DNA from: Deltaproteobacteria bacterium
GTDB lineage: Bacteria; Myxococcota_A; UBA9042; DTJE01
Direction: 5' to 3'
Length of the DNA: 47,773 nucleotides
Assembly (NCBI GenBank): GCA_029555025.1
Contig: JAKPTZ010000061.1
Location: forward strand, 1 to 47,773
Positions 1 to 31,718 of this stretch are shown here, one piece after another; the stretch's first letter is position 1, and every line of letters begins with the position of its first letter. The notes below the pieces were generated by a model, which worked only from the letters and a program-made list of their open reading frames with translations, was not told where the DNA came from and ran no database searches. The position numbers and the translations under genes were made by a program.

Positions 1-3000
1 TGGCATTCGCCGCCGATGGTGTAATCCTGGGCAAGGCAGTCGGCCTTGCAGTCGAACTTGTTCCAGAACTTCGTGTTCTGGTCGCAGTAACAGATGTTGT
101 CCGTATCGGCGCATTCCACCGCGGCCGTGGCCGGGTCGCACGGACCGGCGCATTCGCCCACGTCCATGATCGACAGTTCCATCGAGAACGCACCACCGGG
201 GTGTCCGTTCGGTTCGACGACGATATACACGTCGTGGTCAACGGCAACCGGCGGCATCGTGATCCATTCCGGCATGTAATACAGCGGGCCGGGGCCGAAC
301 GCCACGCAGTTGTTGGTATCCTGGGCGTCCAGGATATACATGTTCGCGGCGGTGAACCTTTCCTTCATCTCGACCTTCAGGAACTTGCCGTCCGGAACCT
401 TGACCGAATACACGATATCCTTGCCGGACATGTCCTTGTCGGCGCACAGGCCACCGGTTGGCGCGACGTCGTTCGTCCAGGGGTACGCCAGGTTCATGAA
501 CTGCATGACCGGGGTATCCTCGATTTCGACGAACAGCGTCGAATCCAGGCTTTCACCCTGGTAATTGAACGGCGTGTCGCCCATCGTCATCAGTGTTGTC
601 AGGTTGACGGGGCCGGCGCCGAACCTGGAAACGTTCATCGCGATGAAGTAACGAACCGGGTCGGCCGTCGTGTTGACCAGGGTAAGACCCTCGGTTCCTT
701 CCTTGCCGACGTTGAAGTTCGACCAGGTAACCGCGGTGCCGGCTGGATCGTCGCAATCGGTGAACGCCCACATGGAAAGGTTGTCGGCAGGCTCGTTCGG
801 CTCTGCCTGAACCAGATAGACGCTGAAATTGCCGGGATCGGTCACGCCGGGGACATCGACCCAGCGCACAAGGTCGGGTCCGGCCGTGTCGCCGACGACG
901 GTCGGTGAAGCCGTCGAGTCGGTTACGTTGTTCATCGCCAGGGCCGACAGGGCGATCGGCATCGCCACGTCGTCCGAACAGTTGTCGCCAGTGACCGGCA
1001 GGAAACTGGAGACTTCCAGGACGTACGGCTGGCGAAGGAATCCGTCAACCCACGGATCCTGGACGATTTCCACATAGACGAAGCCGTTCTCGGCCGGCAC
1101 GTATCCGAAGATCGCCGGGAAGTAGCTGGTGGCCGAATCCGCGATTGCGTAACCGTCGATGTATTCGCCGTCGCCGTCACGCAGAAGCATGGCCGGGTCG
1201 GTCTCGACCCCGCAGGACGGGCCGGTGATGAATGAGTACGCCATGCCGCCGGTTACGGCGAACTTGAAGATGTCGTTGTCGTACTGGGTCATGCCGACAG
1301 GATTGAACGCGGCCATCACCAGCATCGGAATGGACTGAATGACCTGGGCCGTATCGACGTCGTTGTTCGGCTCGACTTCCATGACGCGACCCTCGGCCGC
1401 ATAGTATTCGCAGTATCCGCCATTGCAGGCCAGAAGTTCGCAATCGCATTCAAGGTCGCCGTCGCATGTTTCGGATCGGCAGATGCCGTTTGCGCACTTG
1501 CCGCCGATGCATTCTTCGTCAAAGCGGCACGCGTCGCCGTCGTTGATGTAAGGACGCACGCACAGTCCGGCCGTTTCCTGGCATCCGACGCCGCCGGCCT
1601 GGCAGGTGAACGACACGGGGGCGCAAACTTTCGTGAAGCCGTCCAGCGAATAGCAGCGGGTTCCGACCGGGCAGCTTCCTTCGTCAAAGGTGCACTGCGG
1701 GGTGCAGAACATTTCGGTTTCCGAAACCTGGACGCAGTAAGCTTCGTTGAAGAAATCTTCCGTGCCGTCGTTACAGTCCGCGTTGGTCGCGCAGGACGCG
1801 CAAAGATCCATCGGTCCTTCCGGAACGATGGCCTCGGCGCCCTCGCAGTCCTCGTCGGCGGCGCACGTTTCGGTGCACATGCCGTCGGTGCAGACGTACG
1901 ATTCGCAGTCGGCGTTCATGCGGCAGTACCCGTACGGGAAGTTGGGCGTCGGGAAGCCCTTGTTGCAGACCTTGTCAACGCATCCCATGCCGTGCGGGCA
2001 GTCGAGCTCGGTCGTGCACGCCTTGCTGCAGTAGTATTCGCCAAGGTATCCGTCGGCCAGGCACATCTCGTCGCATTCCCAGGCGTATTCGCAGGTGTCC
2101 TGGATGTCCTTGCCACCGACCAGTTCGGCCGGCACGCAGCGCTTGTCCGTGTCGCTGTACGCGAAGCAGATGCCGTTCGGGCAGTCCGAATCGATCTCGC
2201 AAACCTTGTTGCAGACGCCGTTCAGGCAGTCGAATCCGTCCGCGCACTGCCATTCCCAGACGCACGCCTCGCCGTAACCGGCGCCGCCGTCAACCGTCTT
2301 CGGCACGCAGGCAAGATCCTCGAACTGGACGGCCTCGGCAAGGACGCGCACCGAGGTGGCTGCTTCCGGGAAGGCGACCTCGAACTTGAACCAGTCCTGG
2401 CCGGCCGCTTCCATCGTCGCCTTGACCCTGAACGGGGCCGTCTTCGCTTCCGCGCCGGCCTTGTCGTCGTTTGCCTCGACCTCATCGACGGTCGTCTCGG
2501 CCATGGCCTGTTCGCCAAGTCGAACGTCAAGGTAGTACGGGCCCGTGATAACGTCATTGACGCCCTTGACGCCGATGAAATATGTGCCGGCTTCCTGGAC
2601 GTAGTATGAAATCCTGGACAGGTTGCCTTCGCCGGCGTTGTCGTCGGTCGCCACGGCAGCCTCCGCGCCGTCCTTCCACAATTCCATCATGGTGTCGATC
2701 CGGATCCAGCCTACCTGGCGGCATTCGCCGTCGGTGCAGTCATCGCAGCCGGTGATGCACCTGGTGGTGCCGGCCACGTCGCGGCAGGTTCCGACCGAGC
2801 ATTCATAATCGTGCATGCATTCGGCGCCGAACGGCTTGTTCAAAGACGTGTCGGCGACACAGATCGCAACGTCGCCGTTGTATGCGTTCAGGACGCACTC
2901 GAAGCCGTCCGGGCAGGAATCCAGGTCTTCTCCGAAAATGAAGCACTGGTTGCTGCAGTAACCTTCGTAACAGAAGTGGTTGTTGCAATCCAGGGGGCTC

Positions 3001-3971
3001 TGGCACGGGGCACCCTCGCGGCCTTCCGCCTCGGGCACGCAGTAAAACTCGAACTGGAATCCGTTATCGGTTCCACCGTCTTCGCACGCGCCGCATTCGC
3101 CGCACTTGGCCGAGTCCTTGGTGCCGCCGGCCTCGCTTTCGCAGTTCATGGTGCAGAAGCGGGTGGTGTCAAATCCAAGACACAGGCCGCCCGCGCAGTC
3201 TTCGTCGCGGTTGCACGGCTTGAACAGTTCGATCGTTCCGTCGCCCGGGTAGTTGTCGGTTCCGATGCGCATGCAGAAGTACTCGTTGTCCGCGTTTTTC
3301 GTGCAGCGCAGGCCGTCCGGACAGGCCGCCGTCTCGCAGCGCTGGGTGCAGAAGTGATCCCAGCCCCAGCCGTCGGCCATGCACAGGCCGGAAGCACATT
3401 CCGAATCGAAGTTGCAGGGCATGCCGGCCACCTGGTCGTACGCCCTGAAGTCACACTCGCCGAACGGCTGGCAAACGCCAAGGATGCACGCGCCGCTGCC
3501 GTCGATTCCAGGCTGCGCCTCGCATGAGGTGCCGTTGGGAAGCGCGCCGGAAAGGTCGAATTCGCAGGCGCCAGTCTCGAGGTTGCACGTGCCGTTGTCG
3601 AACAGGCACTTGCCGTCGGGGGCGCAAACCACGTCAACGGCGACGCAGGCGCCGGACTGGCATACGGGGGTCTTGCAGTTGCCGGCGCCTTCCATCGCGC
3701 AGGCCCCGCCTTCGTTGATTACGTTGCAGCCGTCGCAGCAGTCGTCGGCGACCGTGCAGGTACAGACAACGTCGGTGCCTTCATCCGGGCGAACGTCCGG
3801 TGGGGTCGTATCCGGTGGGACGTCCTGCATCGAGTCCATTTGTGAATCCGGCAACGTCACGTCGTAGATGACGTCCGGCTCCCCGTCGCCGCCGCCGCCG
3901 CAGGCGACAAGCGTTGTCGCCATGAAGGCGACCATGATGGAAACTGACAGAACCCTGAAGGCACGATTCAT
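1..3971 (-). CDS. Giant cysteine-rich lipoprotein, C-terminus beyond window
   Basis: The frame is open from ATG 3971 to the left edge (1,322 complete codons), so the stop lies outside the window. The N-terminus is a lipoprotein signal with lipobox LVAC (Cys24). An acidic linker rich in Asp, Pro, Thr and Val follows (about residues 25-65). Next come about nine disulfide-type modules of the form C-x4-[DE]-C-x3-G-x-C, interrupted near residues 440-550 and 860-1270 by beta-rich stretches. These contain EANDD and EPNND motifs and resemble PPC (bacterial pre-peptidase C-terminal) domains. From about residue 1274 an eight-Cys module begins that also occurs twice in the lipoprotein at 30567-31718. 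The protein is probably anchored in the outer membrane and exposed at the surface or in the periplasm. No catalytic motif is visible, so a structural, adhesive or ligand-binding role is only inference. A promoter at 3999-4027 supports the start. Confidence 0.9.
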   Translation of the reverse strand, partial: MNRAFRVLSVSIMVAFMATTLVACGGGGDGEPDVIYDVTLPDSQMDSMQDVPPDTTPPDVRPDEGTDVVCTCTVADDCCDGCNVINEGGACAMEGAGNCKTPVCQSGACVAVDVVCAPDGKCLFDNGTCNLETGACEFDLSGALPNGTSCEAQPGIDGSGACILGVCQPFGECDFRAYDQVAGMPCNFDSECASGLCMADGWGWDHFCTQRCETAACPDGLRCTKNADNEYFCMRIGTDNYPGDGTIELFKPCNRDEDCAGGLCLGFDTTRFCTMNCESEAGGTKDSAKCGECGACEDGGTDNGFQFEFYCVPEAEGREGAPCQSPLDCNNHFCYEGYCSNQCFIFGEDLDSCPDGFECVLNAYNGDVAICVADTSLNKPFGAECMHDYECSVGTCRDVAGTTRCITGCDDCTDGECRQVGWIRIDTMMELWKDGAEAAVATDDNAGEGNLSRISYYVQEAGTYFIGVKGVNDVITGPYYLDVRLGEQAMAETTVDEVEANDDKAGAEAKTAPFRVKATMEAAGQDWFKFEVAFPEAATSVRVLAEAVQFEDLACVPKTVDGGAGYGEACVWEWQCADGFDCLNGVCNKVCEIDSDCPNGICFAYSDTDKRCVPAELVGGKDIQDTCEYAWECDEMCLADGYLGEYYCSKACTTELDCPHGMGCVDKVCNKGFPTPNFPYGYCRMNADCESYVCTDGMCTETCAADEDCEGAEAIVPEGPMDLCASCATNADCNDGTEDFFNEAYCVQVSETEMFCTPQCTFDEGSCPVGTRCYSLDGFTKVCAPVSFTCQAGGVGCQETAGLCVRPYINDGDACRFDEECIGGKCANGICRSETCDGDLECDCELLACNGGYCEYYAAEGRVMEVEPNNDVDTAQVIQSIPMLVMAAFNPVGMTQYDNDIFKFAVTGGMAYSFITGPSCGVETDPAMLLRDGDGEYIDGYAIADSATSYFPAIFGYVPAENGFVYVEIVQDPWVDGFLRQPYVLEVSSFLPVTGDNCSDDVAMPIALSALAMNNVTDSTASPTVVGDTAGPDLVRWVDVPGVTDPGNFSVYLVQAEPNEPADNLSMWAFTDCDDPAGTAVTWSNFNVGKEGTEGLTLVNTTADPVRYFIAMNVSRFGAGPVNLTTLMTMGDTPFNYQGESLDSTLFVEIEDTPVMQFMNLAYPWTNDVAPTGGLCADKDMSGKDIVYSVKVPDGKFLKVEMKERFTAANMYILDAQDTNNCVAFGPGPLYYMPEWITMPPVAVDHDVYIVVEPNGHPGGAFSMELSIMDVGECAGPCDPATAAVECADTDNICYCDQNTKFWNKFDCKADCLAQDYTIGGEC

Positions 3972-19001: not shown

Positions 19002-21320
19002 ATGAAAAAGGTTCCGTTCGTTCCGGCGTTTTCCGGCGGTCATCGGTGGGCCTTCGCCAGGATTGGCGGGTTTAACCAGGTCATGCTGACCACTGGCGAC
19101 GACCTGCGTCACCTGGGGGAACTGGACGAGAAGCTTTTTTCCGCGCTTTCCTGCCCGACGAAGGGTCTTGAGTACGATGGGGCTACCCTTTCCCTGCTGG
19201 ATACCGATGCCGACGGCAGGATCCGCGTGGTCGAAATCAAGGCTGCCGTCGCCTGGGTATGTGCGCGTTTGAAGGATCCCGCCGTCATCATGTCCGGAAG
19301 CGACACGTTGGAACTGGCGTCGATTGACGATTCCAGACCGGAAGGGGCCGCTTTGCTTGCATCCGCGAAGCACATCCTTTCGTGCATCGGAAAGGGCGAT
19401 GCGGATCGGATCTGCCTTGCGGACGTGACCAATCGCGCCGCGATCTTCGCCGAGTCCGAATTCAACGGCGACGGCGTCCTGCCCCCCGCGGCGGTCAAGG
19501 ATGCCGAACTGCGGGCGGTGGTGTCGGACATCCTCAAGGCTGTCGGTGGCTCGTCCGATCGCAGCGGTGCTGCCGGTATCGATGCCGACCGTCTTCAGGA
19601 CTTCATGGCCCAGGCCGGCGCGTGGGTTGCATGGAAGACGGCACCGGATGCCGACAAGGCGATCCTGCCGCTGGGGGATGCGACCGGCGCGGCGTTTGAT
19701 GCCTTCGTGGCTGTTCGGGACAAGGTCGAGGATTACTTCGCCAGGTGCCGTCTGGCGGCTTTCGACAAGCGTTCGGTGGCCGCCTTGAACCGCGAGGAAA
19801 AGGATTATCTCGCGCTTGCGGCGCGCGACATGAAGATTACCGATGCCGAGATCCAGGCGTTGCCCCTGGCGGCAGTCGATGCCGGGCGTCCGCTTCAGCT
19901 TGTCAACGGCGTCAACCCGGCCTGGATTGACCGCATTGCCGCGTTCCGCGAGAAGGTTGCGTCGGCCCTTAATGGCGCACAGCTTTCCTCGATTTCCTGG
20001 GAGCAGTGGCAGGCGATTGTCGCGAAGATGGCCCCCTTCCAGGCGTGGGTCGAGGCAAAGCCGGCCGGGGCGGCTGTCGCGGCGCTGGAGGAAATCGGGG
20101 TCGAACGTGTCCGTGCGATCACTGGCGGCGAGTATGGCCAGAAGATCACCGACCTTATGGCGGCCGACAAGGCGGTCGAAGGTGAAGCCGCGGCCATCGA
20201 CGACCTTCAGAAGTTGCTGTATTTCCACAAGAATCTTTTCAAGTTGTTGAAGAACTTCGTGTCGTTCGCCGAGTTTTATCAGCGAAGCGACAAATCCGTT
20301 TTCCAGGTCGGAACGCTCTTCATCGACAACCGCAGTTGCGATTTGTGCATACGTGTCAACGACATGGGCAAGCATGCGATGATGGCCGGTTCAAGCCGGA
20401 TGTTCCTGCTGTATTGCGACTGCGTCAGGCCGTCGGGTGAAAAGATCCAGATTGCGGCGGCAGTCACCGATGGCGACAGCGACGATCTGATCGTCGGAAG
20501 GAACGGGATATTCTATGACCGCCAGGGGCGCGACTGGGATGCGACGATAACGAAGATAATCGAAAACCCGATTGGCGTCAGGCAGGCATTCTGGTCGCCG
20601 TACAAGCGTCTGATGCGCTTTGTCGAGGAACAGGTCGCGAAAAGGGCCGCGGCTGGCGATGCGGCATCCGAAGACAAACTGAAGGGCGCCGCGCTCGCGG
20701 CCCCCGGCGCCGCGAAGGATGCGGCCGACGGTAAGGCCGTTCCACCCGCCAAGTCGAAGTTCGATGTCGGCGTGGTCGCCGCCCTGGGCGTCGCCGTCGG
20801 CGGCATCACGGCGGCCTTCGGGGCGTTGATGCAGGCGTTCTTTGGACTTGGCGTCTGGCTGCCGCTTGGCCTGATCGGGATTATCCTGCTGATTTCGGGA
20901 CCTTCCATGGCAATTGCCGCGCTGAAGCTGCGCCAGAGAAACCTTGGGCCGCTGCTTGATGCGAACGGATGGGCGATTAACGCCAAGGCGCGCGTCAACA
21001 TCGCATTTGGAAACGGCCTTACAAGGGTCGCGGAACTGCCGGCCGGGGCGACCTGCTCGCTGGTTGATCCTTACGCGAAGAAGAAACGTCCGAAGTGGCC
21101 CTGGATCGTTCTGCTGATTGTCGTCCTTCTGGTCGGCGGCGGTCTGTTTGCCTGGAACAAGGGCTGGCTGAACGACTGGCTGCCCGACTCGCTGGATCGC
21201 AACCTGCCGAAGGCGGTCGAGACGGTTCCGGCCCCCGCGGCCCCGGCCGCGCAGCCCGCGCCAGCGGCCCCCGCGGCACAGCCGGCACCGACATCTGCAC
21301 CTGCGGCCACGGCCGGGTAA
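19002..21320 (+). CDS. Unknown protein with an EF-hand and C-terminal membrane region
   Basis: 772 residues; I do not recognise a named family. A perfect canonical EF-hand loop DTDADGRIRVVE lies at residues 67-78, and a degenerate second one (FNGDGVLPP) near residue 160, so calcium binding is likely. The long middle is mostly helical and soluble. Near residues 585-640 two hydrophobic segments occur, then a third at about 700-715, ending in an Ala/Pro-rich tail. There is no N-terminal signal peptide, so the large N-terminal part is probably cytoplasmic. GAAGAGG precedes ATG 19002. recC begins only 14 bases after its TAA stop, so the two are likely co-transcribed; the functional link is open. 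It is one of only two complete genes here that end in TAA. Confidence 0.8.
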   Translation: MKKVPFVPAFSGGHRWAFARIGGFNQVMLTTGDDLRHLGELDEKLFSALSCPTKGLEYDGATLSLLDTDADGRIRVVEIKAAVAWVCARLKDPAVIMSGSDTLELASIDDSRPEGAALLASAKHILSCIGKGDADRICLADVTNRAAIFAESEFNGDGVLPPAAVKDAELRAVVSDILKAVGGSSDRSGAAGIDADRLQDFMAQAGAWVAWKTAPDADKAILPLGDATGAAFDAFVAVRDKVEDYFARCRLAAFDKRSVAALNREEKDYLALAARDMKITDAEIQALPLAAVDAGRPLQLVNGVNPAWIDRIAAFREKVASALNGAQLSSISWEQWQAIVAKMAPFQAWVEAKPAGAAVAALEEIGVERVRAITGGEYGQKITDLMAADKAVEGEAAAIDDLQKLLYFHKNLFKLLKNFVSFAEFYQRSDKSVFQVGTLFIDNRSCDLCIRVNDMGKHAMMAGSSRMFLLYCDCVRPSGEKIQIAAAVTDGDSDDLIVGRNGIFYDRQGRDWDATITKIIENPIGVRQAFWSPYKRLMRFVEEQVAKRAAAGDAASEDKLKGAALAAPGAAKDAADGKAVPPAKSKFDVGVVAALGVAVGGITAAFGALMQAFFGLGVWLPLGLIGIILLISGPSMAIAALKLRQRNLGPLLDANGWAINAKARVNIAFGNGLTRVAELPAGATCSLVDPYAKKKRPKWPWIVLLIVVLLVGGGLFAWNKGWLNDWLPDSLDRNLPKAVETVPAPAAPAAQPAPAAPAAQPAPTSAPAATAG

Positions 21321-21334
21321 CCCGGGGGTTCCCG

Positions 21335-24300
21335 ATGTCCCTGCACATAGTTTTCGGAAGCGACACCGCCAGGCTGGCGCACCGTCTTGCCAGCGACATC
21401 GCCCAGTCCACGTCCGGCGCCGGGCTGGCCGGCCTGTTGATGCCGACAAGCGTGCTGGTGCCGAACCGCAACATGGAAAAGTGGCTGCGCTTCGAAATTG
21501 CAAGGCACAACGGCATCGCGGCGAACCTGTCGTTTCCATACCTGGAAAACGGCCTGTGGGAACTGGTCGGACGAATCGGCGTCGCGTCGGGGCGCGTTGC
21601 GGCCGATCGGTCGGGGCGTCCGATACTGGAAAGGCTGGATCTGGAAACCCTGACCGCCAGGCTTGCGGCGATTCTTCTGCAGGACACCGCGGACCCTTCC
21701 CGGATCGATTCGTCGTTTGTCAGTTACTGCATGGCTGGGGGCGGCCCGGGCGACCCCGGGTTTTCCATACGCCTGTGGCAACTTGCCGGGCGGCTGGCCC
21801 ACCTTTTTCGCGAGTACGAATTCAATCGTTCCGGGATGGTCAGGGAATGGCTGGCGGGAAAAATCGATCCTTCGGCCGGGGAGCTTCACGCAAGACAGGC
21901 CGGACTTTACCGCCAGGCTTGCAGTCTGCTGTATTACGACTGGGACGCCCACGCGGCCCGTCCGGCACGGTCGCTGTTCCAGCTTGGCGAGGAAGTGTTC
22001 CAGGATCCGGGCCACCGGCATGGTATCAGGAACGATGAACCGGATTGGGGCGAAACCGCAGGGGAAGTTGCGCCCCCCGCGGGAACGCTTCCCGGAACCG
22101 TTTTCATATTCGGTCTTTCGACGCTTTCGCGTTATCACTGCCGCCTGCTGTGGAAAATTTCCAGGCGGTGCGACATCAGGCTTTATCACGTCAACGGCTG
22201 TCACGAGTTCTGGCAGGACGTTTCGACGCCGTTCGAGGAACGCTGGCACAGGATCCGAGCCGCGCGTGTCGTTTCGGTGCCGGATGGCCAGGGCCAGGAA
22301 CTGGCACTCGACAACGACCTGGACGACAACCTTCTGTTGAAGGCATGGGGAAAGGCCGGTCGCGAGACGGTACGCCTTCTTTCGGAACTGGAGGATCAGC
22401 CCTCCGGCGTGACGACCGAATGGGTTGACGAACCGGAAATCGATTTTGACCGCGCGACGGTGCTTGATCGCGTACGGCACGGCATCCGGACAAGGTCGTC
22501 GCAGGTCGGCAGGACGGTCGCCGACGACAGCCTTGTCGTCTTGAAGTGTCCCGGCAGGCTGCGCGAGGTCGAGGCCGTCGCCGAACGGATCACCGCCTTG
22601 CTGCAGGCCGATCCTGACCTGAAACTTTCCGACATCGTCGTGCTTGTAACCGACATGGCCTCCTACAAGCCGCTGATATCCCAGGTTTTTGATCGCGATC
22701 GAAGCCGGCCTGACAACGTCTGGGATCCCATTCCGTACAACCTTGCGGACTCGACCGCCGGCACCGACAGCGTCTATGCGGCGGCGGTCGAGGCGATGCT
22801 GAACCTGGCCGGCGGCGATTTTTCAAGGGGTGCCGTATTCAGGCTTCTTTTCAATCCGTGCTTCATGGCGGCGGCCGGTGTGGGGCCGGCAACCGTCGAG
22901 GGCTGGGCCGGGCTGGCCGACAGGCTGGGGATCTTCCACGATTTTCATCCACAGGCGTCCGGGGAGGGCGCGTTCACCTGGTCGGACGCATTCGCCAGGT
23001 TGCGCCTTGGCAAGGTGATGATTCCGGACGATGAACGTCCGGCCCCGGAACCGGACGATCCGAATCCCTTTGCTGCTGTATGGCCATTCATGCCGGCGGA
23101 CGCGGACGGGCTTGACGCCGAATCGTTCTGCACCGTCGTCGAGTCCCTGGCCGCAAGGCTGGAGGTTTTGAGAACTCCTTTGATGCCGGTTGCCGATTGG
23201 GGAATGGCGCTGACGTCGCTCTTCGACGACTTCCTGTCCGTTCCCGCCGATCGCAAGCCCGAGGAACTTGTTCGCCAGTCGTTGGTGTCTGGATTGCAGT
23301 TCTATTTCGGCGGCCGGTCGATACTGGATTCCAGCCTGAAGACCGTCGGCGCCAGCGAAGAAAACCGGTTGATTCCGGCGCACCTGGCCTTCGAGATTGT
23401 TCGCGGTCTTGCCGGAAGCATCCCGACCGGGCGCGGCGCATATCTGTCCGAGGGCGTGACTGTCGCGACACTGAAGCCGATGCGCCCGATTCCGTTCAAG
23501 GTGACATTCATCCTTGGCCTGGAGGAGGGCGGTTTCCCGGGGGCCGCGCGGGAATCGTCGCTTGACCTTCGAGGCGGCGACAGACGGATTGGCGACGTGA
23601 CTACGCCGGACTCGGGTCGTCACATGTTCATGGAGACGCTGCTTTCGACCACGCAGAGCCTGGTGTTGAGCTATGACGCATGGGACACGATGAAGGACGA
23701 GCGTCACCAGCCGTGTTCGGTGGTTCGCCAGCTTATCGATTTCGTCGAGGCGAACGTGCTGCCGGGGCAGGGCGACGACGGTGGTTTCAAGGAACTGGAA
23801 ATTCCCCTTTCGCCATGGGGTGAAAGATACCTTGGCGCCGACGCGCCGGTTCCGCAGGGTGCGACACGAATCGCCGACAGGCTTGTGGCCGGGCTGCTTG
23901 GGGCCGCAGGTTCCGCGCGCGCGCCCGGGCTGGCCGCGGCGATTGAAGGGGCTGTCGGGAATGTCGCCGTTTCCGGACGTGACAGGCAGCTTCTCCGGGC
24001 GGCGCTTGATCTGGTTTCCGACCATCGCGATTGCCCGCGCGCAGATGGACCCGCGATGGCTGAACCTGGTGATTCGTCCACGCCCGAATATGATTCCGGG
24101 CCGATCACCGTAACCATCCAGGAACTGAACCGCTTCCTGCGCGATCCGTTGAAGGCCCGGCTGGCCCGGTTCTTCGGGCGCCAGGACGACCTGGATAAGC
24201 CCGATCCGTCCGGCCTGGAAGATGAAGGATTCGAATTCGAGACGTTTACCGGTCGAACACTGAAGGAAAACTGGCTGAAGGACATCCTGGGCGGCATGGA

Positions 24301-25129
24301 TCCGGATCGGGCGTGGGCGCGGCTTGAAAATTCGGGTCGAGCCCTTTCCATGAGATCCAGCGCGCCTTCACCGTATTTCCGTCAGCTTTCCGAACTGGGC
24401 GTCAGGAAGGCACTTTCCAACACACCCGAAGCGATCATGGATTCGATTGGGGGCATGAAACCCCTTTCCGAGGCCGTGATGGGGCAGGTTTCCTTCTCAA
24501 GGGGGGCTCCGGGATTGCGGCTTGCGCCCGCATCGTTCTCGGCCAGGATATCGAAACCGGACGGAAGCAGTATCGACATGGCCGTCGAAGTGACCGGGCG
24601 GGTCGATTTCGTGGTTCCGGATCTGGATGGATTGCCCTTGATTATCGGAAATGTCAGTGCTTCCGGGGCCAGCGAAACCGGGCCGTTCCCCCGGGCATTG
24701 ATCATGCCGACCCTGTTTGGAATCGTGGCCGGAATCGGCGCCGGGCGGCGTGAAATCGACTTCGGCGCCGTTGTGGTGTGTGCCGACAAGAACGTCGCCA
24801 GGCGGATCAAGGTGCCGGTTTCAACCGCCGCGGGATGGATTGAAGGCCTGATTTCCGATTACCTTGACTGTCGCAGGATCCTGGAAAACCTGCCGTATGA
24901 CGTGGCGGTCAAATATGCAGGCTTAAGCCCCGACGAACCGGAGGACGAGGACTTCCGGCGCGCGATGCGGGCCAGGATTGAAAAGGGCAGCCAGGGTGGC
25001 TGGGCAACCCAGCCGATCAACGCTTTGCAGAAACTGGTCTGGGATCGGACCGTGCTGCCGGAACGGATCCGGGAAACGATTGAATCGCGGTACGGCCTGC
25101 TGTGGCGTTGCGGCGGGGGTGGCGCATGA
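21335..25129 (+). CDS. recC: Exodeoxyribonuclease V subunit gamma RecC
   Basis: RecC holds the RecBCD machine together and reads Chi during double-strand break processing. The product is 1,264 residues, longer than the 1,122 of E. coli RecC. Family-type stretches include PTSVLVPNRNMEKWLRFEIA near the N-terminus, CPGRLREVEAVAERI with the following LSDIVVLVTDMASYKPLI (about residues 405-445), and FILGLEEGGFPG in the inactive helicase-like half. As in other RecC proteins there is no Walker A motif or active nuclease triad. The frame remains open upstream to 21095, but ATG 21335 after the preceding stop fits the family start. Its stop overlaps recB as ATGA. Confidence 0.93.
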   Translation: MSLHIVFGSDTARLAHRLASDIAQSTSGAGLAGLLMPTSVLVPNRNMEKWLRFEIARHNGIAANLSFPYLENGLWELVGRIGVASGRVAADRSGRPILERLDLETLTARLAAILLQDTADPSRIDSSFVSYCMAGGGPGDPGFSIRLWQLAGRLAHLFREYEFNRSGMVREWLAGKIDPSAGELHARQAGLYRQACSLLYYDWDAHAARPARSLFQLGEEVFQDPGHRHGIRNDEPDWGETAGEVAPPAGTLPGTVFIFGLSTLSRYHCRLLWKISRRCDIRLYHVNGCHEFWQDVSTPFEERWHRIRAARVVSVPDGQGQELALDNDLDDNLLLKAWGKAGRETVRLLSELEDQPSGVTTEWVDEPEIDFDRATVLDRVRHGIRTRSSQVGRTVADDSLVVLKCPGRLREVEAVAERITALLQADPDLKLSDIVVLVTDMASYKPLISQVFDRDRSRPDNVWDPIPYNLADSTAGTDSVYAAAVEAMLNLAGGDFSRGAVFRLLFNPCFMAAAGVGPATVEGWAGLADRLGIFHDFHPQASGEGAFTWSDAFARLRLGKVMIPDDERPAPEPDDPNPFAAVWPFMPADADGLDAESFCTVVESLAARLEVLRTPLMPVADWGMALTSLFDDFLSVPADRKPEELVRQSLVSGLQFYFGGRSILDSSLKTVGASEENRLIPAHLAFEIVRGLAGSIPTGRGAYLSEGVTVATLKPMRPIPFKVTFILGLEEGGFPGAARESSLDLRGGDRRIGDVTTPDSGRHMFMETLLSTTQSLVLSYDAWDTMKDERHQPCSVVRQLIDFVEANVLPGQGDDGGFKELEIPLSPWGERYLGADAPVPQGATRIADRLVAGLLGAAGSARAPGLAAAIEGAVGNVAVSGRDRQLLRAALDLVSDHRDCPRADGPAMAEPGDSSTPEYDSGPITVTIQELNRFLRDPLKARLARFFGRQDDLDKPDPSGLEDEGFEFETFTGRTLKENWLKDILGGMDPDRAWARLENSGRALSMRSSAPSPYFRQLSELGVRKALSNTPEAIMDSIGGMKPLSEAVMGQVSFSRGAPGLRLAPASFSARISKPDGSSIDMAVEVTGRVDFVVPDLDGLPLIIGNVSASGASETGPFPRALIMPTLFGIVAGIGAGRREIDFGAVVVCADKNVARRIKVPVSTAAGWIEGLISDYLDCRRILENLPYDVAVKYAGLSPDEPEDEDFRRAMRARIEKGSQGGWATQPINALQKLVWDRTVLPERIRETIESRYGLLWRCGGGGA

Positions 25130-28100
25130 TCACGCTGACCAGTTCGACCGGCGTCACGATGGACCTTTCCGGCGTCATTGATCGGCACGCCGTCATCCAG
25201 GCATCCGCTGGAACCGGAAAGACTTATACCCTTGAACACATCGTCCTTCAGATTCTTCTGGATTTTCCGGATGTTTCGCTTCGCAACATACTCCTGGTCA
25301 CCTACACTGAAAAGGCGGCCGGCGAACTGAAGCAGAGGATTCGCAAGCGGTTGATGGACACGGCCGGCGGGAAGGACGTTTCGCCCGCCACGGCCGCCAG
25401 GCTGCGCATCGAACTGGACGATTTCGAGTCGGCGTCGATATCGACAATCCACGCATTCTGTAATCGTGTACTGATGGAGTTTGCCTTCGAGAATTCCCGT
25501 CCGCTTGAGCTTCAGCAGGGCGGAGATTCCGACATGCGGTCGCGCCTGTTAAACCGGATTGTCAGGGATGAATGGCCGCGGATTGACCCCCGGAGGATGA
25601 ACGCCAAAGGTACTCTGCCGATTGCTTCGGAAGCGTTGGGCAGGTTGCGCGAAGTCTTGAATGTCGCGGGGGAAAAGCGGTCCCTGGACGGCCTGCTGCC
25701 GGAATTTGACGGTGACCTGGCGGATGCGGTCAGCACAGCCCAGATTCTTGCGTGGACCACTTCCGCCCTTTGCGCCGCCGTGGCGCGGGAAAAGATGGCA
25801 TCGTCGCTGGTGACTTTCGGCGACATGATTTCCGACGTGAGATCCGCTCTGACCATGCCGGGGCCGGCGGGGCGCGCCCTGCTCGAACGCCTGCGGAAGC
25901 GGTTCCTGTTCGGCATAGTCGATGAATTCCAGGATACCGACCCGGACCAGTGGGACATATTCAGGACGGTTTTTGTTGAAGGGGGCGGACCGAACCGGCT
26001 GATTGTGGTCGGCGACCCGAAGCAGGCCATTTACGGCTTCCGTGGCGCCGACTTGCGAACGTACCTTTCAGCCTGTTCGGAAATTGAGCGGCGCGGCGGC
26101 AACATCTTGAGCCTTCAGACGAACTACCGTTCTTCCGTACCGATGATTGAAGGTTTTAACGGAATTTTCCGGGACACCGGCTGGTTCGGGACCGACATCG
26201 AGTGTCCGGAATTGCTGGCCCCGGCGGATGGAAGGCCGCAGGATTTGGTGGCCGACGCGTCCGGGCGGGCCGCGGTGGTTCCGGTTCACATCATGAGGCC
26301 TGGTGAAAAGGGCAAGCTGGAGGTCGATGAGGCCCGTTACAGAACCGCGCGATTCATCGCGAAGGAGATCTCCCGGCTGACCGGATCCGGCGGGATCATT
26401 CTGCCCGGGCGCGCCGGTCAGGGGCCGCGGCCGCTTGGCCTGGACGACATTTGCATCCTTATCCAGAAGAACGATGACTTCCGGCTGATTTCAAGGCTGC
26501 TGCGCGCCGAGGGCATCCCGCACGCCCAGTACAAGCAGAAGAAGCTTTACGAATCGGCCGAGGCGGAAAACGTGCTTGTCCTGCTGAAGGCGATTTCACG
26601 GCTTGGTGCGGGTCCAGGTTCCCAGTCAATCGATTCCGTGCTTCTTACCAGATTCTTCCTTGATCGCCCGGATCCGGCCGACATGCTTGAACCCGAACGG
26701 CGGAACCACGCGGCCCGTACTCTTGAAGCCTGGCGGGCCCTGGCGATTGATCGGAACTGGGCGATGTTCTTCGAGGCAATTTCGCGCGATACAGCCCTTT
26801 TCGTGCGGGAAGCGGCCGAATTCGACGGTGAAAGACGGCTCGCGAATTTCAGGCAGATATTCGGGGAACTTGCTTCGTTCGCCGATTCCGGTTCGCTGGA
26901 TCTTCATGGGCTGATCGGTCGCATGGAGCAGTTGAAGGCCGGTTCAGGTGACGAGGAAGAATCGACAATGGCCCGTCTGGAATCGGAACAGCCCAGGGTC
27001 AGGGTATTGACGATTCACGCGGCAAAGGGGCTCGAGTTCCCGATCGTGTTCGTCGCGGCGGGCTTTTCCGGCCCCAGGTCGGGGAAGTCGTGCAGGGGCT
27101 ATATCGGCCGTGACAGGTATTTCAGTTTTGAACGACCTTATCCCGGACTTGTCGAGGACAACGACCTTCCAAGGCTGTTTTACGTGGCTCTGACGCGGGC
27201 CATGTACAAGCTGTACGTGCCAACGGACTGGACGCCATCGAAGAACGACGGCGCCCCGATATGCACCTTCATCAAGGCCGGGCTGGCCAGGCTGGCGCAG
27301 TTGACCGAATCCGGCGGGCGGGTTCGAAGCGATGTGGATTGTGGCGGCATTCCGATCGGGTCGGTAGCCCCCGAAATCGTCTGCGTGGATGATTCCGGAA
27401 AGCGTCAGGAAGGATCCGCTTCACCCCATCCAATGCTGCCCGACCTGACCCCTGGCGCGCAGATTCGCTGGCCGCTGCGCCGTCTGTGGGTTGATTCGTA
27501 TTCGTCGCTGACCGGGCTTGCGGGACGAGCCCAGTTCGATGTCGAGGGGATGGCGGGCTCAAGGGCGGATGATGCCACCGACGACGAGGCGATTGAACCC
27601 ATGATCGGCGCGCCCACCACCGCCGATGCGGCCGGGATCCAGGCTACGCCCCTGCTGATGGCCGGACGGCACACCGGAGACGCGTTTCACCAGTTGATGC
27701 AGGATATCGCCTGCGGGCGCGCCGGCGATGACGGAAATCCCCTGGATTTCAGTGATTTTGCCCGGCTTGATTCCCCGGCCGCCATAATGGCGTCAAACGT
27801 CGGTTCCCTGATCATCCAGAAGATGAAAAGCAACGGCGTTCCGCTGAAATTCGGGCAGCCAGGACCTGACGGTTCCGTCGATTCGTCCGAACTGCAGTTC
27901 GCCTCGCTGGTCTGGTCGGCATTGCGTGGACATCTGGGGGATTCGGCCCCGCTCGATTTCAGCATTTCGGATCTGTCGTCATCCGACACGCTCGCGGAAG
28001 TGGAATTCCATCTTGACGAGTCTCGGTTCGGTTCGGGCCCGCTGGCGCCCGGCAACATGGCCGATGGAATTCCACCGTGGCGAAGCGGGCTGCTGAACGG

Positions 28101-28485
28101 CGTCATCGACCTTGTTTTCCAGAAGGACGGTCGATTCTGGTTTCTTGACTGGAAGACGACCTCGGTCAGGGACGAAGGCGGGCGGAATCCGGACTGGTCC
28201 GCCGGGGCGATATCAAGGGCCATGCGTGACAACGGCTATATCGTCCAGGCCCACGTTTATCGAATCGCGATGCTTCAGTGGCTTGAATCGGTGTTCGGGC
28301 CGGGTTCCGGACACCTGCTTGCCGGCGGGCTGTTCCTGTTCGTCCGCGGCATGGGCCCGCCAGGTCGCGGGGTCTGGAACAGCCGGGAAATCTTTACGGA
28401 TACGGACGGTTCCGAGTCAAGGCTGTTCGTCCGGAAGCTGCTGGCCCGCAGCGCGGCGCACGCCGCCGGAAGGGGGCGCGAATGA
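25126..28485 (+). CDS. recB: Exodeoxyribonuclease V subunit beta RecB (helicase-nuclease)
   Basis: RecB is the 3'-5' helicase and the only nuclease of RecBCD. The 1,119-residue product has all SF1 motifs: Walker A ASAGTGKT (26-33), TYTEKAAGEL, STIHAFCNR, Walker B DEFQDTD (from 266), VGDPKQAIYGFRGAD, TNYRSS, TIHAAKGLEFPIVF and YVALTRAM. The C-terminal nuclease domain retains Asp995, Asp1008 and Lys1010, with the same 13 and 2 residue spacing as the catalytic residues of E. coli RecB, plus an upstream GDAFHQLMQ helix. Both activities should therefore be intact. It overlaps recC and recD by four bases each. Confidence 0.96.
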   Translation: MITLTSSTGVTMDLSGVIDRHAVIQASAGTGKTYTLEHIVLQILLDFPDVSLRNILLVTYTEKAAGELKQRIRKRLMDTAGGKDVSPATAARLRIELDDFESASISTIHAFCNRVLMEFAFENSRPLELQQGGDSDMRSRLLNRIVRDEWPRIDPRRMNAKGTLPIASEALGRLREVLNVAGEKRSLDGLLPEFDGDLADAVSTAQILAWTTSALCAAVAREKMASSLVTFGDMISDVRSALTMPGPAGRALLERLRKRFLFGIVDEFQDTDPDQWDIFRTVFVEGGGPNRLIVVGDPKQAIYGFRGADLRTYLSACSEIERRGGNILSLQTNYRSSVPMIEGFNGIFRDTGWFGTDIECPELLAPADGRPQDLVADASGRAAVVPVHIMRPGEKGKLEVDEARYRTARFIAKEISRLTGSGGIILPGRAGQGPRPLGLDDICILIQKNDDFRLISRLLRAEGIPHAQYKQKKLYESAEAENVLVLLKAISRLGAGPGSQSIDSVLLTRFFLDRPDPADMLEPERRNHAARTLEAWRALAIDRNWAMFFEAISRDTALFVREAAEFDGERRLANFRQIFGELASFADSGSLDLHGLIGRMEQLKAGSGDEEESTMARLESEQPRVRVLTIHAAKGLEFPIVFVAAGFSGPRSGKSCRGYIGRDRYFSFERPYPGLVEDNDLPRLFYVALTRAMYKLYVPTDWTPSKNDGAPICTFIKAGLARLAQLTESGGRVRSDVDCGGIPIGSVAPEIVCVDDSGKRQEGSASPHPMLPDLTPGAQIRWPLRRLWVDSYSSLTGLAGRAQFDVEGMAGSRADDATDDEAIEPMIGAPTTADAAGIQATPLLMAGRHTGDAFHQLMQDIACGRAGDDGNPLDFSDFARLDSPAAIMASNVGSLIIQKMKSNGVPLKFGQPGPDGSVDSSELQFASLVWSALRGHLGDSAPLDFSISDLSSSDTLAEVEFHLDESRFGSGPLAPGNMADGIPPWRSGLLNGVIDLVFQKDGRFWFLDWKTTSVRDEGGRNPDWSAGAISRAMRDNGYIVQAHVYRIAMLQWLESVFGPGSGHLLAGGLFLFVRGMGPPGRGVWNSREIFTDTDGSESRLFVRKLLARSAAHAAGRGRE

Positions 28486-30536
28486 CGAAAGGCCTTTCGT
28501 GGCTGGACGCGCTGGGCTGGCGGCCCGGGTTCATGATTGATGCGCGCGTGGCCGAGATGTATCGGCGTGCCGTCGAAAACGACCTGATCTCGCCCGATGA
28601 TGCGCTGGCCTGTCGCGATATTCTTGCGATTGCCGGATGGCGCGTTGCGGACGCCGAGGCCGATTTTGCCGTGAACTGCCTGATGGCCGGTCTTTTTTCC
28701 GTGTGCAACCAGGGAAGTCTGTGTCTTCCGCTTGACGTGGGCACGCTTGAAACCGAGTTCGGCCGCCTGCTTGCGACAACCGGTGACGTTGTCGATTCGC
28801 TGCCGTCCGCCGGCCACGTGGCGGCGCGCGCGGCGTCCCTGATTGACGATGGATTGCCGCTTTTTGCGAATCCGGATGGGTGGGATCCGTATCCGCTGGT
28901 CACCGATGGACGATTTCTGTGGTTTTCCCGGCACCACGTCCATGAAACCGGGCTGAATGCCGCACTGCAAAGGCTTGCCCTGACGCCTGGCGGCCAGTTC
29001 GTGTCCAGCCCGCTGTCGGGAATGGATCTGGAAAGCGTTGTCAGCCAGGTCGGGGCCGGAAGGGAAGGGCGGGATCTTAACGAACGGCAGAAGTCCGCGG
29101 TTATGAAGGCCCTTGTGAAGAGGTTCGTCGTGGTGTCGGGCGGTCCCGGTACCGGCAAGACCAGGATCCTGGCCGCATTGTTGCGCGCCTGGTGTCTGTG
29201 CGGGGCGGTTCCCGGCGAGATGTTGCTGGTGGCGCCGACCGGTCGTGCCGGAAGGCGCATGGGTGAGTCGATCAGCGCCGCCATTGACGACGCAATAATC
29301 GGTCCTGACGAGTTCCAGGTCGAGGACATCCGTGGCCTGACCGGAAGCACGATACACAGGGCGCTTGGTTTCAGGCCGTCCTGGAACGATTTCAGGTTTG
29401 GTTCCGACAACCCGCTGCCGCATCGGTATGTGGTCTGCGACGAGGTGTCGATGGTTGACGCCGCGTTGATGAACCGTCTTCTGCAGGCAGTCCGTCCGGA
29501 CGCGCGCGTCGTCTTTCTTGGCGATCGCGACCAGCTTCCATCAGTCGATTCCGGCACGGTTCTGGCCGATATCATCCCGCGTGGCGACGTGTCCGGGCCG
29601 ATGAAGGATTCGATCGTAATGTTGTCGCAGTCGTATCGAGCCGGGGGCCAGGTACTTTCGCTTGCCGGTGTCGCCAATGCCGGTGACGGCCAGCGATTTC
29701 TTGATCGGGCCGGTCGCCTTGCCGACCGCGTTCCGGATCGCGACGAATGGGGGCTTCCTGGTGCCGCATGCGTGATCCTGCGACCGGATTACCCCAGACA
29801 GGGCGGGATTGGCCCGATGCTGGAATCCTGGGTTTCGTGGATTTACGGTTGTCGGCCGGAAGCCGGCTCTATTGGCCGTGCGTTTGAGGCCCTGGCAGCC
29901 CGCCGGCTCGATACGCGGTTCGCGCCGGGTTCGGAAGACGCTGTGGTGATGAACGGACTTTTCAGGGCACTGCAAATGGGCCGTATTCTGTGCGTGCTTC
30001 GCGACGGGCCGGAAGGTGTGGTCGGCATCAACCGCGCAATCGCAAGGCTTGCCGGGGGCCGCGACGGGTTGTTTGCCGGGGGCCGCGACGGGTTGTTTGC
30101 CGGGTGCCCGGTGCTGGTTACCCGCAATATCGCGGCCCAGGGGCTCTTTAACGGCGATGTCGGCATGGTCATGAATGATCTGGACGGCCAGCCGGTCGCC
30201 ATCTTTGATGACGGCGTCGTCTTCAGGTCATTCCCGGTGCAGTCGATTCCGGGTCTGGAACCGGCGTTCGCAACCACGGTGCACAAAAGCCAGGGCTCCG
30301 AATACGGTAATGTGCTGCTTTTCCTGCCATCCAGGGCGGATCATCCACTGCTTGTCCGCGAGATTCTTTACACGGCCATGACCCGGGCAAAGAACAATGT
30401 CTGGATACACGGAACCGACGAAAGCATCCGTGGCGCCATATCCAGAAAGGTATCCAGGTACTCCGGAATATCCCCCTGGAACCGCCCCAATCCGCCCCAC
30501 GATCCGATCCACACCATGCCCCGTACTGGCGAATGA
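28482..30536 (+). CDS. recD: Exodeoxyribonuclease V subunit alpha RecD (5'-3' helicase)
   Basis: 684 residues, somewhat longer than the 608 of E. coli RecD. Walker A is GGPGTGKT (220-227). Other motifs are CDEVSMVDAAL, LGDRDQLPSVDSGTVLADI, a late TVHKSQGSEY and YTAMTRAKN. RecD is the fast 5'-3' motor of the complex. The start overlaps the recB stop as ATGA. An exact 24-base tandem duplication at 30051-30104 adds GGRDGLFA twice in a loop just before the conserved PVLVTRN...GLFNGDVG segment. The gene ends 30 bases from a convergent lipoprotein gene. Confidence 0.95.
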   Translation: MTKGLSWLDALGWRPGFMIDARVAEMYRRAVENDLISPDDALACRDILAIAGWRVADAEADFAVNCLMAGLFSVCNQGSLCLPLDVGTLETEFGRLLATTGDVVDSLPSAGHVAARAASLIDDGLPLFANPDGWDPYPLVTDGRFLWFSRHHVHETGLNAALQRLALTPGGQFVSSPLSGMDLESVVSQVGAGREGRDLNERQKSAVMKALVKRFVVVSGGPGTGKTRILAALLRAWCLCGAVPGEMLLVAPTGRAGRRMGESISAAIDDAIIGPDEFQVEDIRGLTGSTIHRALGFRPSWNDFRFGSDNPLPHRYVVCDEVSMVDAALMNRLLQAVRPDARVVFLGDRDQLPSVDSGTVLADIIPRGDVSGPMKDSIVMLSQSYRAGGQVLSLAGVANAGDGQRFLDRAGRLADRVPDRDEWGLPGAACVILRPDYPRQGGIGPMLESWVSWIYGCRPEAGSIGRAFEALAARRLDTRFAPGSEDAVVMNGLFRALQMGRILCVLRDGPEGVVGINRAIARLAGGRDGLFAGGRDGLFAGCPVLVTRNIAAQGLFNGDVGMVMNDLDGQPVAIFDDGVVFRSFPVQSIPGLEPAFATTVHKSQGSEYGNVLLFLPSRADHPLLVREILYTAMTRAKNNVWIHGTDESIRGAISRKVSRYSGISPWNRPNPPHDPIHTMPRTGE
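30051..30104 (+). repeat. Exact 24-bp tandem duplication inside recD
   Basis: Two identical 24-base units (30051-30074 and 30075-30098) plus six bases of a third. They encode two copies of AGGRDGLF in frame. Identity extends to third codon positions, pointing to a recent duplication by slippage. Confidence 0.95.
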
Positions 30537-30566: not shown

Positions 30567-31718
30567 TCAGGTGCCGCAGGCTGCCGAGCCGGTGTCGTCA
30601 AATACCGACAACTCCGGGTACAGGTACTGGCAGGTCGGGGTATCGCAGTACTGGTCATTGGCCCATCCGCACGGATCGGCAGCCGCGCACGTGCATTCCG
30701 AATACACGCCGAAGTCACACTGGTTCTGGACCGCGTCGCTGTCAACGCAACTGTAATTGACGCATGAACACTGGTACTGTTCGCTCATATCCACAAAGCA
30801 CCACTGTTCCGGGTCGAGCTCGGCACCAAGATAATCGCAGAAGTCGGTGCAAGGCAGCGATTCGAAGTATCCCTCATAGCACCAGCACAGCCCCTGATCG
30901 TTGTCGCAGTACGCGATTCCTTCATCCGGGTCGCATTCGCCGCCGCAGTCGCAGTCGTTCGGTTCGGTGAAGGAATCCTCGGGGAATTCCAGTTCGCATA
31001 TCTTGTCGCACCAGCCGTCATTGTCCCAGTTGCACGGGTCGGCAGCCGCGCATGTGCACGGCGTGTATGAATAAGCGTTGCACTGGGACGTCGTCAGATC
31101 CGTTCTGGTGCAGTCGAATTCGCAACTGCAGTATTCGGCCCCGTCGTCATTGATGCACTGTGAGCCGACCATGTTGCTGTTGGCGCATGCGTCGGCGCAG
31201 TTGAATGCCATCCATTCCCCGTCCTCGCCGCAGAAACACACGGAAAGCCCATCTTCGGAACACCACATGGCGTCGGTTCCGTAAGTGCATGAACCGGTGC
31301 ATCCCTCGACATCGACGGTGTCGGTCTGGTTTCCGGTATCCGTTGGCACGTTGGTATCCGTTGGCACGTTGGTGTCGGTCGGCACGTTGGTGTCCGTTGG
31401 CACGTTGGTGTCCGTCGGCACGTTGGTGTCGGTCGGCACGTTGGTGTCCGTCGGCACGTTGGTGTCGGTCGGCACGTTGGTGTCCGTCGGCACGTTGGTG
31501 TCCGTCGGCACGTTGGTGTCCGTGCCGGTACCGTGATCGACCGGAACGTTCTGATCCCGATCGTCCGCATCAGGGTTGACGACGAGGTCGGGCTGGTTAG
31601 TGTCGAAAGGAATGAAGATGTCTTGAAGCACGTCGTTGGTTGAGATGTTATCCCCGCCACAGCCGGCCACAAGAAGGAACATTCCAGCCAGCACCAGAAT
31701 CGTGATCTTTGCCTTCAT
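30567..31718 (-). CDS. Cys-rich lipoprotein with ten NVPTDT repeats
   Basis: 383 residues. Lipobox LVAGC gives the lipidated Cys20. After a short acidic segment come ten perfect NVPTDT hexapeptides (about residues 69-128), forming a 60-residue low-complexity stalk. The rest (about 139-383) is cysteine-rich and built from two tandem units of about 115 residues. Each starts with the pattern C-x3-C-x8-C-x(6,7)-C-aromatic-C and ends with CTCAAADPC followed by W-x-N-D-x2-C-D. The same eight-Cys opening is found at the end of the giant lipoprotein at the left edge. A surface lipoprotein on a stalk is the best reading; ligand or partner is unknown. The start overlaps the stop of the upstream membrane-protein gene (ATGA), so the two are co-transcribed. 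Confidence 0.92.
   Translation of the reverse strand: MKAKITILVLAGMFLLVAGCGGDNISTNDVLQDIFIPFDTNQPDLVVNPDADDRDQNVPVDHGTGTDTNVPTDTNVPTDTNVPTDTNVPTDTNVPTDTNVPTDTNVPTDTNVPTDTNVPTDTNVPTDTGNQTDTVDVEGCTGSCTYGTDAMWCSEDGLSVCFCGEDGEWMAFNCADACANSNMVGSQCINDDGAEYCSCEFDCTRTDLTTSQCNAYSYTPCTCAAADPCNWDNDGWCDKICELEFPEDSFTEPNDCDCGGECDPDEGIAYCDNDQGLCWCYEGYFESLPCTDFCDYLGAELDPEQWCFVDMSEQYQCSCVNYSCVDSDAVQNQCDFGVYSECTCAAADPCGWANDQYCDTPTCQYLYPELSVFDDTGSAACGT
31335..31514 (-). repeat. Ten 18-bp tandem repeats encoding NVPTDT
   Basis: Exactly ten 18-base units fill 31335-31514. They vary only at three positions (CCA/CCG, ACG/ACC and GAT/GAC codons), all synonymous, so each copy encodes the identical hexapeptide. A partial unit follows on the N-terminal side. 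Confidence 0.97.

What the first reader, a model, noticed from the sequence alone, without database searches (positions are those of the whole stretch)
1..152. Eight-cysteine module shared by two unlinked lipoproteins
The end of the giant lipoprotein visible at the left edge (first Cys codon at 150-152) and two places in the lipoprotein at 30567-31718 follow one pattern: C-x3-C-x8-C-x(6,7)-C-[FYW]-C-x(9,11)-C-x3-C-x(9,12)-C. The aromatic residue between two cysteines and the fixed first spacings are kept, while other residues differ widely. This looks like a small disulfide domain reused by this organism's surface proteins, and I do not recognise it as a named domain.
Basis: seen in the sequence. 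Interest (0 to 1): 0.65.

Follow-up and report, generated by a model that had tools for sequence, protein, structure and literature searches.

The report
Defensin-like module in bacterial surface proteins
Two surface lipoproteins in this Myxococcota genome share a small cysteine-clamped building block that has no database name, recurs across the phylum on lipoproteins and proteases, and appears to contain the fold of antimicrobial defensins used as an attachment part rather than as a free peptide.

Summary
In detail: the three stretches are copies of one domain. Chance is excluded by shuffles and by profiles built only from other species. AlphaFold models of a copy from the small lipoprotein and one from a giant orthologue give the same beta-beta-alpha-beta-beta topology. 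Three corrections. (1) The unit has ten cysteines; the last C-x-C was missed, and the giant protein is cut by the contig start. (2) In these proteins it is half of a ~120-aa cassette; the other half (B) is a separate module. (3) The aromatic in C-x-C is not conserved. No Pfam or NCBIfam family claims it. An 8-cysteine form lacking C1 and C4 is scattered over Myxococcota (28 of 379 genomes), on lipoproteins, trypsin-like and neprosin proteases and beside LDLa repeats. C1 and C4 were lost together at least twice, implying a C1-C4 disulfide. The C-terminal half meets the published cis-defensin spacing in 44/44 copies; the broad profile's PDB matches are 33/34 defensin/scorpion-toxin folds, against 0/2 for a cysteine-fixed shuffled control. 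No single match is significant and Foldseek finds nothing. Copies are acidic, so an accessory binding role is likelier than killing.

The parts
3..3971 (-). Giant Cys-rich lipoprotein (1323 aa, 107 Cys), 3' end missing at the contig edge; PPC-like domain around residues 436-470
   Evidence: orthologues of 1225-1485-aa frames in the same GTDB family end in an A+B cassette
3900..3971 (-). Signal peptide with lipobox (LVAC, C24) of the giant lipoprotein
   Evidence: read in the translation; inference, no signal-peptide program was run
3..152 (-). Module A of the giant protein, C1 to C8 (residues 1274-1323); C9 and C10 lie beyond the contig start
30567..31718 (-). Small lipoprotein (383 aa) with architecture A-B-A-B
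31659..31718 (-). Signal peptide with lipobox (LVAGC, C20)
   Evidence: read in the translation; inference
31329..31532 (-). TDTNVP-repeat spacer between the lipid anchor and the first module
31122..31301 (-). Module A, copy 1: ten cysteines at residues 140, 144, 153, 161, 163, 174, 178, 188, 197, 199
   Evidence: modelled
30951..31130 (-). Module B, copy 1 (begins at the C-x-C that ends A)
   Evidence: modelled
30762..30947 (-). Module A, copy 2
30588..30770 (-). Module B, copy 2

Best explanation
Module A is an undescribed extracellular domain of Myxococcota. It is a CS-alpha-beta (cis-defensin-type) core, beta-alpha-beta-beta, held by C5-C8, C6-C9 and C7-C10, with an N-terminal extension of about 25 residues pinned by C2-C3 and, in the 10-cysteine form seen here, by C1-C4. 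It is used as an accessory part of larger secreted proteins: here behind a lipid anchor and a Thr/Asp/Pro spacer, paired with an acidic Cys-rich module B; elsewhere between a protease domain and a MYXO-CTERM-like anchor. Most likely it is a protease-resistant binding or stalk module that presents the protein at the cell surface and holds a partner, substrate or matrix, not a released antimicrobial peptide. Shown: the family, its spread, its contexts, the agreement of two predicted structures, and the coupled loss of C1 and C4. Inferred: the CS-alpha-beta kinship (about 0.6), the other disulfides, and the binding role (about 0.45).
For: Same family. Fold: two AF2 models of different proteins with the same order of elements, E-E-H-E-E (pLDDT 93.6; 83.2), with C6-x3-C7 in the helix and C9-x-C10 in the last strand. 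Cysteine pattern: 44 of 44 copies match the cis-defensin expression of PMC11561630, CX(2,18)CX(3)CX(2,12)CX(4,17)CXC, against 1.3% of shuffles with the six cysteines consecutive and 7.9% with looser matching. Sequence: the profile of 66 copies matches 34 PDB sequences at E<=10, of which 33 are defensins or scorpion toxins aligned on the same columns, the best being the bacterial defensin actinomycesin 2RU0 (identity of 2RU0 from PMC8819291). With cysteines kept in place and other residues shuffled the list has 2 entries, neither of this fold. Pfam: about 20 family matches to defensin or toxin families (best E 0.0026-0.013) against 4 in the control (best 0.25); an 86-aa stand-alone relative reaches Toxin_3 E 0.0024. 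C1-C4 pair: about 42 copies with both, about 21 with neither, 3 with a Cys at C1 only (2 of these belong to a neighbouring module), 0 with C4 only; in giant orthologues the two were lost together at least twice on well-supported branches. Contexts: trypsin-like and neprosin proteases, LDLa repeats, lipoproteins. Net charge -1 to -17 in all 44 copies.
Against: No single match to a defensin is significant (best PDB E 0.05) and none reaches a Pfam cut-off. Foldseek found no significant structure, and no defensin among the hits shown, for either model (best E 0.64, antifungal protein PAFC). Some distant 6-Cys modules keep C6 and C7 but lack C9 and C10, which does not fit C6-C9 and C7-C10 if they are true homologues. 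No coordinates were available to measure S-S distances. There is no direct evidence of binding.
Confidence: 0.5

Rival explanations
1. An independent disulfide-rich fold of Myxococcota that reached the C-x3-C / C-x-C arrangement by convergence. It is one of the many Cys-rich repeats of this phylum's surface proteins and acts as a rigid, protease-resistant spacer.
For: No significant sequence or Foldseek match; this phylum has many unrelated Cys-rich modules in the same proteins; the 6-Cys relatives lack C9 and C10.
Against: Cysteine-fixed shuffles lose the defensin/toxin matches, so more than cysteine spacing is shared; predicted order of elements and regular-expression fit.
Confidence: 0.33
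2. Protease-linked regulatory or inhibitor module: module A folds back on, or inhibits and directs, the proteases it is fused to, in the manner of pacifastin-type small inhibitors.
For: A sits on trypsin-like and neprosin proteases in two genomes; pacifastin inhibitors recur among the weak Foldseek hits of both models (2f91, 2xtt, 7sgq, 1gl1).
Against: All those hits have E of 2.9 or more; most copies, including all in this genome, are not on proteases; the Cys spacing differs from the pacifastin signature as I recall it.
Confidence: 0.08
3. Antimicrobial defensin domain carried on lipoproteins for contact-dependent killing of neighbours.
For: CS-alpha-beta-like core; related free defensins are known from myxobacteria (PMC8819291, PMC11561630); a short stand-alone relative exists (L162).
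Against: All 44 copies are net acidic; covalently embedded in large proteins, on proteases and with long spacers. An insect precedent with tandem defensin motifs (X-tox) has lost antimicrobial function (PMC2728511, title and abstract).
Confidence: 0.05
4. Chance pattern in Cys-rich proteins.
For: Both proteins are rich in cysteine (107 of 1323; 37 of 383).
Against: 1 in 20,000 shuffles each; leave-out profiles; conserved in orthologues of both proteins across genera.
Confidence: 0.01

Closest known systems
CS-alpha-beta / cis-defensin superfamily (bacterial actinomycesin 2RU0, myxobacterial defensin classes of PMC11561630, insect and plant defensins, Pfam Gamma-thionin, Toxin_3, Defensin)
   Same: C-x(n)-C-x3-C-x(n)-C-x(n)-C-x-C spacing in every copy; predicted beta-alpha-beta-beta order; class-specific weak sequence similarity beyond cysteine positions
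   Different: Domain of large lipoproteins and proteases instead of a free peptide; N-terminal extension with two extra disulfides; acidic; no significant pairwise match; Foldseek negative
Lepidopteran X-tox proteins (defensin rosary, PMC2728511)
   Same: Several defensin-like motifs strung in one larger secreted protein; antimicrobial function lost there
   Different: Animal immune protein; no lipid anchor, no B module; no kinship tested
Lin-12/Notch repeat (for module B)
   Same: By eye: C-W-x-x-DG-x-CD-x2-C ... DD-x-x-D-C; a weak hit to GNPTAB Notch repeats (E 2.3)
   Different: No Pfam Notch match and no PDB match with the broad B profile
MYXO-CTERM surface proteins of Myxococcota (PMC11980579)
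   Same: Some A-bearing proteases end in a MYXO-CTERM-like tail (read by eye, L129, L132)
   Different: The window proteins are lipoproteins

Membership tests
CS-alpha-beta (cis-defensin) superfamily | Six-cysteine spacing CX(2,18)CX(3)CX(2,12)CX(4,17)CXC | tested here: met
   44 of 44 copies; 1.3-7.9% of shuffles
CS-alpha-beta (cis-defensin) superfamily | beta-alpha-beta-beta order with C-x3-C in the helix and C-x-C in the last strand | tested here: met
   AF2 models of two proteins, with one extra strand before it
CS-alpha-beta (cis-defensin) superfamily | Significant sequence match to a defensin/toxin family | tested here: not met
   Pfam best E 0.0024-0.013, all under cut-off; class enrichment against the shuffled control is strong
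CS-alpha-beta (cis-defensin) superfamily | Structural match to solved defensins | tested here: not met
CS-alpha-beta (cis-defensin) superfamily | Disulfides C5-C8, C6-C9, C7-C10 (module numbering) | not testable with these tools
   No coordinates; co-loss data speak only to C1-C4
Antimicrobial defensin (function) | Small free, usually cationic peptide that kills microbes | tested here: not met
   Embedded in 300-1450-aa proteins; net charge -1 to -17; activity itself not testable here
Pacifastin inhibitor | C-x-C ... C-T-x3-C signature and inhibitor fold | tested here: inconclusive
   Only Foldseek hits with E of 2.9 or more; the signature is recalled, not searched
Lin-12/Notch repeat (module B) | Pfam Notch match or PDB profile match | tested here: not met
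   a weak E 2.3 hit only
A and B are diverged copies of one domain | Profile-profile match | tested here: inconclusive
   hhalign probability 4.6%; a few giant B modules score about 10 bits with the A profile

The most novel reading that the evidence does not exclude
Module A is true kin of cis-defensins. The defensin fold is then widespread in Myxococcota as an acidic, non-killing domain of surface lipoproteins and proteases, and free bacterial (and perhaps eukaryotic) defensins arose from, or alongside, this reservoir. The published survey used here excluded proteins over 130 residues (PMC11561630) and could not have seen it.
Probability: 0.2. Interest if true: 0.85.

Novelty: new variant of a known kind. 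Interest (0 to 1): 0.56.

Why it matters
An unnamed, phylum-wide domain is defined, with its cysteine code, contexts and predicted fold. If the CS-alpha-beta kinship holds, it puts the defensin scaffold inside large bacterial surface proteins. That bears on the proposal of a myxobacterial origin of eukaryotic defensins (Zhu 2007, cited in PMC11561630) and makes it testable: look for the scaffold in long proteins, not only in short peptides.

Tried and rejected
Chance pattern (rejected). A first DNA-pattern scan of GTDB with the window protein found nothing; the scan with the B profile found 15 loci, all in Myxococcota, 'Deltaproteobacteria' or unnamed MAGs. LNR identity of module B: looked convincing by eye, but the broad profile gave no Notch hit. 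A-B homology by profile comparison: unproven. PF00304 across 379 genomes of the phylum: nothing over cut-off. Pfam TSP1_TSH7A-B_C matched 5 of 66 copies (best E 0.00093); set aside because no TSP1 structure appears in the PDB profile search and the predicted fold has a helix. Plasmids: no match. NCBIfam hits at E of about 0.07 to unrelated families are noise.

Full report
WHAT IS IN THE WINDOW. The frame 3-3971(-) is a lipoprotein (lipobox LVAC) of 1323 residues with 107 cysteines; 30567-31718(-) is a 383-residue lipoprotein (LVAGC) with a TDTNVP spacer. The window starts at base 1 of its contig, so the giant protein is cut just after the eighth cysteine. In the same-genus genome G001 the same protein runs on for 78 residues, with a C-x-C pair and a further Cys-rich module.

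NOT CHANCE. A profile made only from small lipoproteins of other species finds the giant's copy (E 2.5e-4), one made only from other giants finds it at 5e-11, and 2,000 shuffled proteins stay at or below 1.4 bits. Orthologues of both proteins in the same GTDB family carry the copies at the same place.

THE TRUE UNITS. Module A is C1-x3-C2-x8-C3-x6,7-C4-x-C5-x9..11-C6-x3-C7-x7..12-C8-x6..16-C9-x-C10. In these lipoproteins it is followed by module B, C-x9-C-x7-C-T-C-x5-C-W..DG-x-C-D-x2-C..FDDxADC, making a cassette of about 120 residues. The small protein is A-B-A-B, the giants end in A-B, some relatives are A-B-B, and a third protein of this genome on contig C148 is A-B-A. A and B also occur apart. 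A stands alone, up to three times per protein, in the MAG behind G059, on lipoproteins and on trypsin-like proteases with a MYXO-CTERM-like tail; in G054 it sits on a trypsin-like and a neprosin protease. B stands alone in tandem on other lipoproteins and in front of other domains. Stand-alone copies show that A is a 10-Cys unit and B an 8-Cys unit, both even numbers.

FAMILY SPREAD. With the profile of 44 copies, 28 of 379 Myxococcota genomes have matches at E<=0.01. The distant members have eight cysteines, lacking exactly C1 and C4. Over the copies collected, about 42 have both, 21 neither, 3 a Cys at C1 only (in two of these that Cys belongs to the preceding domain), and none C4 only. Among giant orthologues C1 and C4 were lost together in G002 and in the G005/G011/G012 clade; well-supported branches force at least two changes. 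This is good evidence for a C1-C4 disulfide. The counts are not independent across copies; the tree result is.

FOLD. AlphaFold2 on the window's A1-B1 cassette (24 sequences) gives pLDDT 93.6 with A as E23-27, E32-37, H38-44, E48-55, E58-64. The A module of the G001 giant (44 sequences) gives pLDDT 83 with E25-29, E35-40, H41-47, E53-59, E67-73. The last four elements, with C6-x3-C7 in the helix and C9-x-C10 in the last strand, have the order of the CS-alpha-beta fold.

DEFENSIN-TYPE CORE. The published cis-defensin expression (PMC11561630) matches 44 of 44 copies. The profile of 66 copies of both forms retrieves 34 PDB sequences at E<=10, 33 of them defensins or scorpion toxins, all on the C6-to-C10 half; the best is 2RU0, a bacterial defensin (PMC8819291). 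Keeping every cysteine in place and shuffling the rest leaves 2 unrelated hits. Pfam behaves alike: about 20 matches to defensin or toxin families against 4 weaker ones. No single match passes a threshold, and Foldseek returns nothing significant. I therefore treat CS-alpha-beta kinship as likely (about 0.6) but unproven, and do not file the module as a defensin.

HOW IT PROBABLY WORKS. The copies are acidic, tethered, multiplied and attached to proteases, LDLa repeats or long spacers. This suits an accessory binding or stalk module at the cell surface whose disulfide ladder resists the predator's own proteases. The insect X-tox proteins, strings of defensin motifs that lost antimicrobial function (PMC2728511), are a precedent for re-use of this scaffold. 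The ligand is unknown. Module B has conserved Asp residues that suggest metal binding; its likeness to Lin-12/Notch repeats was not supported by search.

NOVELTY. No Pfam or NCBIfam model covers A or B. The published survey of bacterial defensins consulted here was limited to 30-130 residues (PMC11561630), which would have excluded these proteins. I found no paper describing the module, but only open-licence papers were searchable.

Noticed in passing
window 33604-39156 (-): 1850-aa RHS/YD-repeat lipoprotein with NHL repeats and a Teneurin YD-shell match.
   Followed up: no
window 21095-30536 (+): Apparent recCBD cluster (Exonuc_V_gamma, UvrD-type and RecD-type helicases) directly upstream of the small lipoprotein gene on the other strand.
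   Followed up: no
L162 (G029:C112:2951-3133): 86-aa stand-alone secreted relative of the 8-Cys form with a sub-threshold match to Pfam Toxin_3 (E 0.0024): a candidate free bacterial CS-alpha-beta peptide.
   Followed up: partly
L160, L164 (G024:C119, G028:C159): Lipoproteins that mix 8-Cys modules with LDL-receptor class A repeats, an animal-like domain pairing in bacteria.
   Followed up: partly
L122, L140: Three tandem B modules in front of a large domain with no Pfam match, shared between two Myxococcota genomes.
   Followed up: no
L037 (G001:C253): Module A followed by repeats of the type EPGxCGCGxxDxDxDGxxDC (thrombospondin-3-like by eye) instead of module B.
   Followed up: no
L045-L047 (G048, G042, G044): 6-Cys relatives that keep C6 and C7 but lack C9 and C10, in front of a conserved GHEFGHW (zinc-protease-like) domain; their pairing does not fit the CS-alpha-beta scheme.
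   Followed up: no
L003 (G000:C122:10054-10449): Another lipoprotein of this genome shares only the TDTNVP spacer with the window protein, so the spacer and the modules are shuffled separately.
   Followed up: no
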